From positions 1,054,001 to 1,118,000 of the forward strand of contig NZ_CP123448.1 of the NCBI RefSeq assembly GCF_030177895.1: a DNA stretch of 64,000 nt, written 5' to 3'. Position numbers and translations under genes: made by a program. A model generated the notes under the pieces. The model ran no database searches. It saw only the letters and a program-made list of their open reading frames with translations, and was not told where the DNA came from. Positions 42,884-46,490 of the stretch are shown here, in pieces. The stretch's first letter is position 1; every line of letters begins with the position of its first letter. Source of the stretch: Kingella negevensis. Lineage in GTDB: Bacteria > Pseudomonadota > Gammaproteobacteria > Burkholderiales > Neisseriaceae.

Positions 42884-43633
42884 TTATTTTGCAAAGTATG
42901 CTTCTAAATCTTCGCTGCCGCCGATGTATTTACCACCGATAAACACTTGAGGCGCAGTTGCTTTGCCAGTAATTGCACGAACTGAAGTGATAGAAGCATC
43001 ACGACCCAAAACGATTTCTTCGTAAGCAAAGCCTTTTTCTTTCAACAATGCTTTAGCTTTCGCGCAGAATTGGCAACCAGGTTTCGTGATGATAGAAACA
43101 GACTCGTGTGGCATCCAAGTTGGATCAATGTGTTTCAACATTGTGTCAGCGTCAGACACTTCAAATGGGTCGCCATCTTTTACTGGTTCGATGAACATTT
43201 TTTCGATTTTGCCATCTTTAACCAGCATAGAATAACGCCATGAACGGTCGCCGAAGCCCAATGCTTCTTTGCTTACCAACATGCCCATGCCTTTAGTGAA
43301 TTCACCGTTACCGTCAGGTACAACAGTGATATTTTCTGCTTCTTGGTCAGCCAACCAAGCGTTCATCACAAATGTGTCGTTTACAGAAATACAAACAATG
43401 CTGTCCACGCCGCGCGCTTTAAATTCAGCAGCCAATTCGTTGTAACGCGGCAAGTGAGTAGAAGAGCAAGTTGGGGTAAACGCGCCTGGCAAAGAGAACA
43501 CAGCAACGGTTTTACCTTTGAACAAATCATCAGTTGAAACATCAACCCAAGCATCATCTTGGCGAGTGTGGAACACAACTGAAGGAACGTTTTGACCTTC
43601 TAATTCAGCAGCAGTTTTAATTTGAACAGACAT
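42884..43633 (-). CDS. Hybrid peroxiredoxin-glutaredoxin
   Basis: Peroxide-reducing enzyme powered by glutathione through its own glutaredoxin. 249 residues: Prx5 domain to about 165 with peroxidatic Cys in PGAFTPTCSSTHLP near 55, and a glutaredoxin domain with GCQFCAKAKA near 185 (CxxC), GKATAPQVFIGG and GGSEDLEAYF. Fusion of this kind is typical of Haemophilus and Neisseria. No regulator beside it. Confidence 0.95.
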   Translation of the reverse strand: MSVQIKTAAELEGQNVPSVVFHTRQDDAWVDVSTDDLFKGKTVAVFSLPGAFTPTCSSTHLPRYNELAAEFKARGVDSIVCISVNDTFVMNAWLADQEAENITVVPDGNGEFTKGMGMLVSKEALGFGDRSWRYSMLVKDGKIEKMFIEPVKDGDPFEVSDADTMLKHIDPTWMPHESVSIITKPGCQFCAKAKALLKEKGFAYEEIVLGRDASITSVRAITGKATAPQVFIGGKYIGGSEDLEAYFAK

Positions 43634-43829
43634 TTTTAAACTCCAATAAGTTTGGTTAAGAATAGGGCGAATTATAAATCTTGCTGAAAATTCTGCAATT
43701 TATATTCTCAATAAGGAAAATTATATAAGTTTATAAATTCTAATTGTGAAAATTTATCAATACCCATTTTCAGGCTGCATTTATTACTTTCCTTCATAAT
43801 GCAAAGAATTATTTTTCATAGTAATCAAC

Positions 43830-43858
43830 TTGACAGATACCGTTAAATAAAGTTAAAT
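43830..43858 (+). promoter_or_regulatory. Promoter of metNIQ
   Basis: TTGACA at 43830-43835, 17-base spacer, TTAAAT at 43853-43858. Perfect -35 region and spacing, weaker -10 region. Predicted start near 43865. Confidence 0.65.
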
Positions 43859-43865
43859 CACATTT

Positions 43866-44006
43866 ACTTCATCACGCCGATTTCATATCGCTTGCGGGCA
43901 ACAGGACACCTGACCTGAAACAGCTAAGCATACAGAATTGACTGTATTTTTAGCCCGTTGTTTCTCGCAAACATCGGGTTTTATTGTATTTAAAAGAAGC
44001 CAAATT
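43866..44006 (+). promoter_or_regulatory. Structured leader of metNIQ with an intrinsic terminator (candidate attenuator or riboswitch)
   Basis: About 140 bases with no ORF containing Met codons. GCGGGC (43894-43899) can pair with GCCCGT (43953-43958), enclosing the small hairpin CAGG-ACA-CCTG and the hairpin ATACAG-AATTGA-CTGTAT (43930-43947). GCCCG instead can be the left side of a terminator, CCCGTTGTTT / AAACATCGGG (43954-43978, loop CTCGC) followed by TTTTATTG. The two folds exclude each other. It does not match SAM-I, SAM-II, SAM-III, TPP, cobalamin, glycine or T-box consensus that I know. See the finding. Confidence 0.6.
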
Positions 44007-44744
44007 ATGATTACCTTAGAGAACGTTTACAAAACCTACCAAACGCGCGACAACAAGCAATTTGTTGCCGTTCAGCCAACCAGCCTCACGATTGAACAAG
44101 GCGAAGTGTTTGGCTTAATGGGTTACTCAGGCGCAGGCAAATCTTCTCTTTTGCGCCTAATTAACCTATTAGAACGCCCAGACACAGGCAAAGTGTTAAT
44201 CGATAACCAAGACTTAACCGCCATGAACAAAAGCCAGCTACGCCAAGCCCGTCAAAGCATCGGCATGGTGTTTCAGCAATTCAATTTATTGAGCAACCGC
44301 ACCGTAGCTGAAAACGTCGCGTTTCCCTTAGAAATTGCAGGTTGGGACAAAGAAAAAATTGAAAAACGCGTGGCAGAATGTTTGGAAATCGTGAACCTAA
44401 CCGAACGCGCAGGACACTACCCCGCCCAATTATCAGGCGGACAAAAACAACGTGTCGGCATTGCCCGCGCACTTGCCCCCAACCCCAGCGTGATTTTGGC
44501 AGACGAACCCACTTCCGCGCTCGACCCAATTACCACACGCAGCGTGTTGCAATGCTTAAAAGACATCAACGAGCGTTTCAAAGTAACCATCGTGATTGTT
44601 ACCCACGAAATGTCGGTGATTCGCAAATTATGCAACCGCACCGCCCTACTGCACTTGGGGCAATTATTAGAAGTGGCAGAAGTAAAAGACGGCGTGATTT
44701 TGGCAAAATCTGAAATCGGTCAAGAATTATTGCGAGACGATTAA
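44007..44744 (+). CDS. metN: Methionine ABC transporter ATP-binding protein
   Basis: 245 residues, the short neisserial form lacking the C-terminal Met-sensing (ACT/NIL) domain of E. coli MetN (about 343 residues), so transinhibition by methionine would not be expected. Walker A GYSGAGKSS near 38, signature LSGGQKQRVGIARALA, Walker B VILADEPTSALD, His in VTHEMSVI. ATG 44007 is preceded by a weak AGAAG; a reading from 43938 has no support. First gene of metNIQ. Confidence 0.93.
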   Translation: MITLENVYKTYQTRDNKQFVAVQPTSLTIEQGEVFGLMGYSGAGKSSLLRLINLLERPDTGKVLIDNQDLTAMNKSQLRQARQSIGMVFQQFNLLSNRTVAENVAFPLEIAGWDKEKIEKRVAECLEIVNLTERAGHYPAQLSGGQKQRVGIARALAPNPSVILADEPTSALDPITTRSVLQCLKDINERFKVTIVIVTHEMSVIRKLCNRTALLHLGQLLEVAEVKDGVILAKSEIGQELLRDD

Positions 44745-44793: not shown

Positions 44794-45459
44794 ATGGAAT
44801 TTGATAATATCCCCAAATTACTACCCGATTTTAAACAAGCCATTTTGGAAACTTTAACCATGGTGGGTGTTTCTGCCACAATTAGCGTGATTATCGGCGG
44901 TTTGCTTGGCGTGTGGTTGTTTACCAGCGGACACGGACAAATTTTTGCCAACCGATTGGTTCATCGCGTATTAGGAACAGCCGTCAGCTTTATGCGCTCG
45001 TTTCCGTTTGTGATTTTGATGATTGTTGTGATGCCGCTAACGCGCCTGATTGTCGGCACATCATTTGGACCATTCGCCGCCAGCGTTTCGTTGAGCATTG
45101 CAGGCAGTTTTTATTTTGCACGACTGGTGGAACAGAATTTGAAAGAAGTTTCACGCGGTGTGGTGGAAGCCGCGCAAGCCATGGGCGCGTCGCCAGCTAC
45201 CATTATTTTTAAAGTGTTGCTGAGCGAAGCCCGTTCAGGTTTGGTTTTGAGCATTACCATTTTGCTGATTGGTTTGCTGGAAGCCAGTGCGGCGGCAGGC
45301 ATGATTGGCGGCGGTGGTATTGGCGACTTGGGTATTCGCTACGGACACCAGCGTTATATGGTGGACGTGATGATTGCCGTTGTCGTGATTTTGACGATTT
45401 TAGTGGTGGTTATTCAATCGGCAGGTAACTTCTTGTCAGCAAAATTGAATAAACGTTAA
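44794..45459 (+). CDS. metI: Methionine ABC transporter permease
   Basis: Inner membrane permease, 221 residues, about five helices. EAA loop VVEAAQAMGASPATIIFKVLL near 127-147 (given as AQAMGASPATII) for contact with MetN, and AAGMIGGGGIGDLGIRYG near 166-183 typical of MetI. Gap to metN is 49 bases with a DUS palindrome. Confidence 0.94.
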   Translation: MEFDNIPKLLPDFKQAILETLTMVGVSATISVIIGGLLGVWLFTSGHGQIFANRLVHRVLGTAVSFMRSFPFVILMIVVMPLTRLIVGTSFGPFAASVSLSIAGSFYFARLVEQNLKEVSRGVVEAAQAMGASPATIIFKVLLSEARSGLVLSITILLIGLLEASAAAGMIGGGGIGDLGIRYGHQRYMVDVMIAVVVILTILVVVIQSAGNFLSAKLNKR

Positions 45460-45545: not shown

Positions 45546-46490
45546 ATGAACACAACATTCAAATTATCTTTGGCTGGCATCATCGCATTGACATTGTCAG
45601 CTTGCGGCGGTCAGCAAGAAGCAGCGAAACCAGCAGCCGCATCAGGCGCAGGTTCAGCACCAGCCAGCGCAGCCCCAGTCGTTGAGAAAACAGAAATCCG
45701 CTTCGGCACAACCCCTGGCGATTTCAGCGACCAAATCAAAGATAGCATTCAAGCGATTTTGGAGAAAAAAGGCTACAAAGTTACCGTACAAGAATTTTCT
45801 GATTACGTCACCCCAAACAAAGCCTTAGCTGAAGACGCGATTGACGTAAACGTGTTCCAACACAAACCTTATTTGGACAACTTCAAAGCCGAACACAAAT
45901 TGGATTTGGTTGAAGTTTACCAAGTGCCAACTGCGCCATTGGGCTTGTATTCAGGCAAATTGACTTCGCTTGACCAAGTGAAAGACGGCAGCACAGTAGC
46001 CGTGCCAAACGACCCATCAAACTTCGCGCGTGCGTTGGTGATGATGGACAGCCTAAAATGGATTAAATTGAAAGACGGTGTGAACCCATTGACTGCCAGC
46101 AAAGCAGACATCGCTGAAAACTTGAAAAACATCAAGTTGGTAGAGATTGAAGCACCGAACTTGCCACGCAGCCGTCAAGACGTTGATTTTGCAGTGGTAA
46201 ACGGTAACTTTGCGATTTCTAGTGGCATGAAATTGACTGAAGCCTTGTTCCAAGAGCCAAGTTTTGCTTATGTAAACTGGGGCGCAGTCCGCACCGCAGA
46301 CAAAGACAGCAAATGGGTGAAAGACGTTGCGGATGCTTACAACTCTGACGAATTTAAAACTTATGCGAAAACTCGTTTTGCAGGTTACAAATTCCCAGCA
46401 ACTTGGGGTGAAAGTGCCGTTGAAGGCGCGAAAGCTGAAGCCTCTGCTGTAGCGGTTTCTTCAGCGTCTGCTGCTTCTGCTGCACAATAA
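45546..46490 (+). CDS. metQ: Methionine-binding lipoprotein
   Basis: NlpA-family binding lipoprotein of the importer, equal to the surface-exposed neisserial antigen GNA1946 family. 314 residues: lipobox LSAC near 20, an Ala-rich linker (to about 48), then FGTTPGDFSDQI and the family words AEDAIDVNVFQHKPYL near 96-111 and APLGLYSGKL. The C-terminus is again Ala/Ser-rich (SAVAVSSASAASAAQ), an unusual tail. Ribosome site GGGAG. Confidence 0.94.
   Translation: MNTTFKLSLAGIIALTLSACGGQQEAAKPAAASGAGSAPASAAPVVEKTEIRFGTTPGDFSDQIKDSIQAILEKKGYKVTVQEFSDYVTPNKALAEDAIDVNVFQHKPYLDNFKAEHKLDLVEVYQVPTAPLGLYSGKLTSLDQVKDGSTVAVPNDPSNFARALVMMDSLKWIKLKDGVNPLTASKADIAENLKNIKLVEIEAPNLPRSRQDVDFAVVNGNFAISSGMKLTEALFQEPSFAYVNWGAVRTADKDSKWVKDVADAYNSDEFKTYAKTRFAGYKFPATWGESAVEGAKAEASAVAVSSASAASAAQ

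What the first reader, a model, noticed from the sequence alone, without database searches (positions are those of the whole stretch)
43830..44006. Possible new cis-acting RNA switch controlling metNIQ
A perfect TTGACA promoter is followed by about 140 transcribed bases with no Met leader peptide. GCGGGC (43894-43899) pairs with GCCCGT (43953-43958) around two small hairpins, while the same GCCCG starts a ten-base terminator stem with a U-tract (43954-43982). The exclusive pairings are the plan of an attenuating riboswitch before a methionine importer. The SAM and other consensus motifs I know do not fit. MetN here lacks the Met-sensing domain, so control could have moved to RNA. Inference from hand-folding; a protein-bound leader is equally possible.
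Basis: partly seen in the sequence, partly recalled or inferred. Interest (0 to 1): 0.72.

Follow-up and report, generated by a model that had tools for sequence, protein, structure and literature searches.

The report
Divergent SAM-II riboswitch before metNIQ
The stretch before this bacterium's methionine-importer genes looks like a little-noticed relative of a known RNA switch that reads the methionine product SAM and stops transcription; it is not a new class of switch, but it would fill a gap in how Neisseria-family bacteria are thought to control methionine uptake.

Summary
The sequence features are real, and the leader is a cis-acting RNA. It is not a new class. It is a divergent member of the SAM-II (SAM_alpha) family followed by an intrinsic terminator.

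Evidence:
- The core GAUUU..GCUUGC..GCUAA precedes metN in 46 of 54 metN-bearing Neisseriaceae genomes.
- A model built without the window finds window 43870-43935 at 26.1 bits, against 14.7 for the runner-up.
- Helix P1 covaries. The window also carries a compensatory P2 change.
- Rfam does not flag the window. Its SAM-II model hits 20 of 20 sampled Burkholderiales relatives, 4 at or above threshold. This is a homology bridge to true SAM-II.

Most likely, SAM completes the pseudoknot and the terminator forms. Without SAM, GCGGGC pairs with GCCCG and metNIQ is read.

Caveats:
- The window's clade is drifting. Two of its four sampled members have lost the aptamer.
- The window lacks the third A of GCUAAA, a SAM-contact residue.
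- Ligand response is inferred, not shown.

In print: metNIQ control in beta-proteobacteria was called unknown (PMC4239095). That paper's metXZ element probably belongs to this family.

The parts
43830..43835 (+). -35 box TTGACA, 49 nt before GATTT
   Evidence: sequence; TTGAC with spacer 16-18 and a -10 of at least 4 of 6 in 43 of 48 aptamer loci, 42-57 nt before GATTT
43853..43858 (+). -10 box TTAAAT, 17-nt spacer, 4 of 6 matches; start of transcription inferred near 43865
   Evidence: not listed by the consensus scan
43870..43935 (+). SAM-II-type aptamer (pseudoknot)
   Evidence: model R2, built without the window: 26.1 bits, E 1e-4 in 64 kb, next best 14.7; R1 partial hit 17.5 bits, next best in the window 12.6
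43876..43878 (+). P1 5' strand GCC (pairs 43897-43899); outer position C43875/A43900 does not pair in the window
   Evidence: P1 covariation in relatives
43879..43883 (+). GAUUU, third strand that lies along P2 in SAM-II/SAM-V structures
   Evidence: conserved in the family; role from PMC6061858, mapping mine
43886..43895 (+). P2 5' strand UAU(C)GCUUGC
   Evidence: pairs checked
43897..43899 (+). P1 3' strand GGC
43894..43899 (+). GCGGGC, 5' arm of proposed antiterminator (pairs 43953-43958); overlaps P1 and P2
   Evidence: terminator-arm enrichment
43902..43917 (+). loop-3 insertion CAGG-aca-CCUG-accug with a small hairpin
   Evidence: fold; insertion in the R2 alignment
43923..43932 (+). P2 3' strand GCUAAGC-AUA; lacks the third A of GCUAAA
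   Evidence: comparison
43953..43958 (+). GCCCGU, 3' arm of antiterminator and 5' end of the terminator stem
43953..43979 (+). intrinsic terminator hairpin, -11.4 kcal/mol
   Evidence: terminator-like hairpin in 45 of 45 distinct aptamer leaders, GCCC..GGG form in 39 of 39
43979..43985 (+). U-tract UUUUAUU
43992..43999 (+). likely ribosome-binding site AAAAGAAG
   Evidence: sequence, inference
44007..44744 (+). metN, no NIL domain
44794..45459 (+). metI
45546..46490 (+). metQ lipoprotein

Best explanation
The metNIQ leader is a divergent SAM-II-family riboswitch with a transcription-terminating expression platform. Shown by comparison: homology to the SAM-II family, P1, conserved P2 complementarity, the terminator, and a conserved link to metN. 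Inferred: when SAM is plentiful it is held in the P1/P2 pseudoknot. That keeps 43894-43899 paired in the aptamer and frees GCCCG (43953-43957) to close the terminator, so metNIQ is not transcribed. When SAM is scarce, GCGGGC pairs with GCCCGU, the terminator cannot form, and the importer is made. In the window itself SAM affinity may be reduced or altered.
For: Model R1, from 34 metN leaders without the window, hits 46 of 83 Neisseriaceae genomes at 26 bits or more, each at metN, with no other listed match above 24.0 bits (33 of these leaders were training rows and 9 were exact duplicates of them, so four were new to the model). It hits 61 of 61 genomes of the Paludibacterium family (one training row) and 200 of 399 of the order (some family genomes included). 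Of 20 sampled order loci, the genes downstream read as metZ-like 12, metN 4, metH 1, small frame plus MATE 3 (three of the 20 confirmed by family models). RF00521 finds the same place and strand in 20 of 20, 4 at or above its cut-off. Sub-threshold RF00521 hits lie on the metN leaders of N. gonorrhoeae (17.2 bits) and Paludibacterium (17.3). The window's U43888-A43930 replaces C-G at a pair that is C-G in 87 of 88 rows. Terminator-like hairpins: 45 of 45. Arm enrichment.
Against: Rfam does not list SAM_alpha in the window even at E up to 10. At 17 bits RF00521 is within genome noise: all 83 family genomes and 13 of 14 control genomes have some match at E <= 10, up to 24.8 bits, most of the listed ones not at metN. 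The reciprocal search is weak: R2 puts the accepted SAM_alpha locus L153 first at 15.5 bits (E 0.057), but L004, beside metN without the motif, scores 14.1, and the accepted locus L154 is missed. The window's P1 is only three pairs, and it lacks the A that contacts the amino-acid end of SAM in SAM-V (A50). Two of four members of its clade have lost the aptamer. Alignment A6 was fitted to a model with P1, so its P1 counts lean that way. Two of the five measures do not clearly exceed shuffles. Antiterminator complementarity is not significant leader by leader (median p 0.175), and its pairs are improbable in the equilibrium fold. An extra hairpin hiding the P2 strand is not supported (1 of 39 at p < 0.05). 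Nothing here measures ligand binding or termination.
Confidence: 0.72

Rival explanations
1. In the window's own lineage the aptamer is a decaying remnant of the SAM-II switch: the terminator remains as a fixed attenuator and SAM no longer matters much.
For: Tree of 43 MetN proteins: window and G083 (both without the third A of GCUAAA) group with G001 and G067 (no aptamer core, no R1 hit), support 100/95. The window has an unpaired outer P1 position and a 23-nt loop 3.
Against: Compensatory changes survive: P1 ACC/GGU in L069 and the P2 change C-G to U-A in the window. The uridines of GAUUU, CUUGC and GCUAA that correspond to SAM contacts are intact.
Confidence: 0.17
2. The variants without the third A have shifted ligand preference, for example to a related adenosyl compound, and the window is such a variant switch.
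For: The state occurs in five loci (window, L069, L080, L097, L098) and needs at least two changes on the tree (gains and losses not told apart). The residue contacts the methionine end of SAM in SAM-V.
Against: No covarying change of the pocket was sought; simple weakening explains it as well.
Confidence: 0.06
3. A protein-bound or sRNA-targeted leader unrelated to SAM-II.
For: None specific found. Two sibling sRNAs affect amino-acid uptake in gonococci (start of the abstract of PMC13104608); no link to metN was seen there.
Against: Nucleotide-level conservation of the SAM-II core and the RF00521 bridge.
Confidence: 0.03

Closest known systems
SAM-II / SAM_alpha riboswitch (Rfam RF00521; metA element, PMC1273637)
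   Same: Single stem P1 plus pseudoknot P2, core GAUUU..GCUUGC..GCUAAA, promoter just before P1, terminator after P2, methionine genes downstream.
   Different: Short P1 and P2, no long GC-rich outer P2 helix, short loop 3, scores below Rfam's cut-off in Neisseriaceae, linked to metNIQ. The window also lacks the third A and has a loop-3 hairpin.
metXZ RNA element of beta-proteobacteria (Leyn et al. 2014, PMC4239095)
   Same: Described as a pseudoknot (regions 1:4 and 2:6) with terminator and possible antiterminator before metX/metZ. Hits of this report's model lie before metZ-like genes.
   Different: Not linked to SAM-II in the passages and section seen; its authors found nothing for metNIQ. 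Their alignment (figures and supplement) was not seen here, so identity is inferred.
SAM-V riboswitch (PMC6061858)
   Same: Same pocket geometry as SAM-II.
   Different: Acts on translation and has a P3 stem; the core here is of the SAM-II type (GCUAAA).
Transcriptional TPP riboswitch of Neisseria thiC (PMC7237195)
   Same: Terminator/antiterminator riboswitch in the same family of bacteria.
   Different: Different ligand and fold. That survey listed a SAM switch before metK (NMB1799) among four elements, none before metN.

Membership tests
SAM-II (RF00521) | Score at or above Rfam gathering cut-off (36 bits) | tested here: not met
   Window: no hit. L001 17.2, L003 17.3 bits. 0 of 83 Neisseriaceae over cut-off. 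Wider family: 4 of 20 at or above. This is a search threshold, not a structural feature.
SAM-II (RF00521) | Homology to accepted members through intermediates | tested here: met
   R1 and RF00521 hits coincide in 20 of 20 loci. Reciprocal R2 search only weakly supportive: L153 first at 15.5 bits, L154 missed.
SAM-II (RF00521) | P1 stem with covariation | tested here: met
   MAFFT alignment A5, 34 rows: CG 23, UA 10, UG 1 at one pair. A6, 88 distinct rows: GC35/AU27/UA1 (25 unpaired) and CG75/UA11/UG1 (1 unpaired). The window keeps three pairs.
SAM-II (RF00521) | P2 pseudoknot | tested here: met
   96.6% of cells paired but mostly invariant, so little covariation. Window double change at one pair.
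SAM-II (RF00521) | SAM-contact nucleotides (U11, U21, U44, A47; SAM-II numbering recalled, mapped from SAM-V U9, U20, U47, A50) | tested here: inconclusive
   The three U present; the A present in the family consensus, absent in the window and four relatives.
SAM-II (RF00521) | Binds SAM and discriminates against SAH | not testable with these tools
   Needs in-line probing or calorimetry.
metXZ element (Leyn 2014) | Six conserved blocks, pairings 1:4 and 2:6, before metX/metZ | tested here: inconclusive
   Topology and metZ context agree; the published alignment was not read.

The most novel reading that the evidence does not exclude
The window's clade, and at least one other branch, carries a natural SAM-II derivative that has lost the residue gripping the methionine end of SAM while keeping a compensated pseudoknot and terminator: a variant switch with a changed ligand or threshold.
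Probability: 0.1. Interest if true: 0.65.

Novelty: new member of a known kind. Interest (0 to 1): 0.5.

Why it matters
Leyn et al. 2014 wrote that metNIQ is not under any known methionine regulator in beta-proteobacteria and that their search failed. The RNA described here offers an answer in Neisseriaceae and its neighbours, including N. gonorrhoeae, whose MetQ has been assessed as a vaccine antigen (start of the abstract of PMC5278169). It also suggests that SAM-II is more widespread in beta-proteobacteria than Rfam's threshold shows, and that the orphan metXZ element is the same thing.

Tried and rejected
New riboswitch class: rejected on homology to SAM-II. Met leader peptide: no ATG between the predicted start and metN. 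Extra hairpin that hides the P2 3' strand in the SAM-free state: not supported across leaders. Significance of the antiterminator in single leaders: not reached; only the comparison with other terminators supports it. 'RNA control replaces the NIL domain': not strict. Plasmid collection search gave two N. gonorrhoeae records, filed as plasmids, plus eight Ligilactobacillus records outside the aptamer. Family search with RF00521 in 83 genomes was too noisy to rank metN leaders first. The order search with MetN (58 of 250 genomes at E <= 1e-70) was not used for leaders.

Rows dropped: nine duplicate aptamers, plus window, L069, L093, L098 and L121, were left out of model R1. L093 (about 135-nt loop-3 insertion) was left out of A3. 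A6 was made from 98 chosen loci, not every locus in hand. The tree used 40 of the 54 family metN genes. L004 lies beside a MetN but lacks the motif (by eye). The 'core present' counts use a regular expression; the eight loci without core also gave no R1 hit up to E 10.

Full report
OBSERVATION. The metN leader from about 43865 to 44006 is 142 nt and contains no ATG. The terminator stem is 43953-43979. Taken alone the evidence is thin. The leader folds only slightly better than shuffles (z -1.96, 6 of 200 as good). The consensus scan lists neither this promoter nor this terminator. The whole-window Rfam search gives four tRNAs only. A permissive search of 43700-44100 gives four weak hits, none of them SAM_alpha or another riboswitch.

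RELATIVES. A nucleotide search found the N. gonorrhoeae metN leader (records filed as plasmids), fetched as L001. A protein scan found Alysiella crassa (87% MetN identity), Paludibacterium and others. The gonococcal and Paludibacterium leaders share GCCGATTTGA..CAGCTTGCGGGC..CAGCTAAAGCG followed by a terminator. Rfam's SAM_alpha model RF00521 aligns to exactly these places at 17.2 and 17.3 bits; its cut-off is 36 and the E-values are 0.069 and 0.076 over all families in stretches of about 200 bases. In whole genomes such scores are noise: all 83 family genomes have some RF00521 match at E <= 10, up to 24.8 bits, none over the cut-off, most of the listed ones away from metN (G039 is at metN), and 13 of 14 control genomes ring too. 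These hits were a lead, not proof.

DISTRIBUTION. MetN was found at E <= 1e-80 in 54 of 83 genomes of the family of A. crassa. All 54 upstream regions were fetched. 46 of 54 carry the core. The eight without are L068 and L070 (relatives of the window), L082, L085, L092, L100 and L105 (metN directly behind another reading frame), and L115 (terminator kept); none of the eight gives an R1 hit up to E 10. A covariance model R1 was built from 34 of these aptamers, including Paludibacterium but not the window. In the 83 genomes it gives 46 genomes with a hit of 26 bits or more, each at metN; the best other listed match scores 24.0 bits (stricter filters; 33 of the 46 leaders were training rows, 9 exact duplicates of them, 4 new). 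In the family of the Paludibacterium genome it hits 61 of 61 at E <= 1e-3, 50 of them twice (one training row). In a draw of 399 genomes of the order it hits 200 at E <= 1e-4, some of them family genomes. The tools name no taxa for these handles; family and order names are my inference from the named seeds.

THE WINDOW. R1 finds 43876-43899 as its best place in the window (17.5 bits, E 0.0026 in 100 kb; next in the window 12.6). R2, built from 102 hits without the window, aligns from its first to its last position to 43870-43935 at 26.1 bits, E 1e-4; the next best place in the window scores 14.7. The window has a 23-nt loop 3 with a small hairpin, a three-pair P1, and GCUAAGC for GCUAAAGC.

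STRUCTURE. P1 covaries. In the MAFFT alignment of 34 rows the second pair is CG 23, UA 10, UG 1; 'pairs changed on both sides' (201 of 500 shuffles as high) and 'further pair types' (499 of 500) do not stand out, the other three measures are reached by 0 of 500. In 88 distinct rows of A6, fitted to a model with P1 and so leaning to it, the outer pairs are GC 35, AU 27, UA 1 (25 unpaired) and CG 75, UA 11, UG 1 (1 unpaired); 0 of 500 shuffles reach the pairing percentage, both-sides cells or covariation score, 22 of 500 the number of pairs changed on both sides, 480 of 500 the pair types. P2 is 96.6% paired but nearly invariant, so it is supported by conservation more than by covariation. The window adds one compensatory change: U43888-A43930, where 87 of 88 rows have C-G and one is unpaired.

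FAMILY BRIDGE. Twenty order-wide hits were fetched. By reading the downstream frames, 12 precede metZ-like genes, 4 metN, 1 metH and 3 a small frame plus MATE transporter. Pfam and NCBIfam confirmed three of the 20, MetZ (L175), MetH (L188) and MetN with NIL (L171), and the MATE protein of L156; the others rest on resemblance by eye. RF00521 matches the same place and strand in 20 of 20, with L175 41.2, L181 39.2, L179 37.5 and L180 36.0 bits at or above the cut-off. In the reverse direction, R2's best hit among 14 outside loci is the accepted SAM_alpha locus L153, but weakly (15.5 bits, E 0.057), with L004 at 14.1 and the second accepted locus, L154, not listed.

EXPRESSION PLATFORM. A terminator-like hairpin follows the aptamer in 45 of 45 distinct leaders, of the form GCCC..GGG in 39 of 39 distinct downstream stretches. 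In 37 of 45 the 5' arm overlaps a stretch of five or more bases complementary to the aptamer's GCGGGC region, but per-leader shuffles reach that often (median p 0.175). GCCC or CCCG lies in the 5' arm of 24 of 28 terminators that follow an aptamer core, against 16 of 155 other terminator-like hairpins in the same 250 kb (related sequences, so not independent). A third pairing that would hide the P2 strand was tested and not supported. Forced folds of the window leader are close in energy (antiterminator -26.1; P1 plus terminator -25.0 kcal/mol, pseudoknot and ligand not counted), while the free optimum is -29.6 and gives the antiterminator pairs 0.002 probability. Switching is therefore plausible, not shown.

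DRIFT IN THE WINDOW'S LINEAGE. In a tree of 43 MetN proteins (40 of 54 family genes plus window, Paludibacterium and L171), window, G083, G001 and G067 form a group (100/95). The first two have GCUAAG, the other two no aptamer. GCUAAG also occurs in L080, L097 and L098; the tree needs at least two changes of this state, without telling gains from losses. In SAM-V the equivalent A50 bonds to the amino-acid end of SAM, and its change to inosine severely reduced binding (PMC6061858, section read). The SAM-II equivalence A47 is my mapping. So membership in the family is firm while normal SAM sensing by the window copy is less certain.

LITERATURE. SAM-II was described from alpha-proteobacteria, with a promoter just before P1, frequent terminators and a few occurrences elsewhere, Bordetella among them (PMC1273637, passages). 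[quoted passage not shown] Leyn et al. found the metXZ element and stated that metNIQ control in beta-proteobacteria is unknown and their search unsuccessful (PMC4239095, passages and section 10). A gonococcal survey predicted a non-significant SAM riboswitch at NGFG_00245 (PMC4176332, section 25); I could not learn which gene that is, so it may be this one or metK. A meningococcal survey listed a SAM switch before metK and none before metN (PMC7237195, passages). NmMetN lacks the autoinhibitory domain (PMC8416018, passages). The listings, several capped well below the number of papers found, showed no paper naming a SAM-II switch before metN in Neisseria; many papers are not held.

VERDICT. 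A real, conserved cis-acting RNA, most likely a transcription-stopping SAM-II riboswitch of a poorly annotated beta-proteobacterial branch; not a new class.

Noticed in passing
L155-L166, L122; L176, L182, L183: Tandem arrangement, mostly before a small MYDC/MFDC-type reading frame and a MATE transporter: a SAM-II-like aptamer with terminator, then a second variant aptamer (GAGUUAAUCGACAACUUGCAG..GCUAAAGCGUCGC or close to it) with no terminator seen (by eye, the print of L164 is cut off). The 99-aa protein of L156 matches no Pfam or NCBIfam family. Tandem SAM-II with terminator first and RBS control second has been reported in general (PMC9481103, section 24).
   Followed up: partly
L169-L188 (14 of 20 loci), L003, window 43842-43984 minus strand: Rfam RF02424 (Burkholderia sRNA Bp2_287) matches the opposite strand of the same element, below its cut-off; that sRNA family may be the antisense reading of this riboswitch and its terminator.
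   Followed up: no
L173-L175, L177-L181, L184-L187: metZ-like leaders in the order carry the element; the orphan metXZ RNA of Leyn et al. 2014 is probably the same family as SAM-II.
   Followed up: partly
L093 468-626: Aptamer with a roughly 135-nt insertion in loop 3.
   Followed up: no
L082, L085, L092, L100, L105: Five genomes have metN directly behind another reading frame and no aptamer; how metN is controlled there is open.
   Followed up: no
window 42884-43633, minus strand: Peroxiredoxin-glutaredoxin fusion gene divergent from metN.
   Followed up: no
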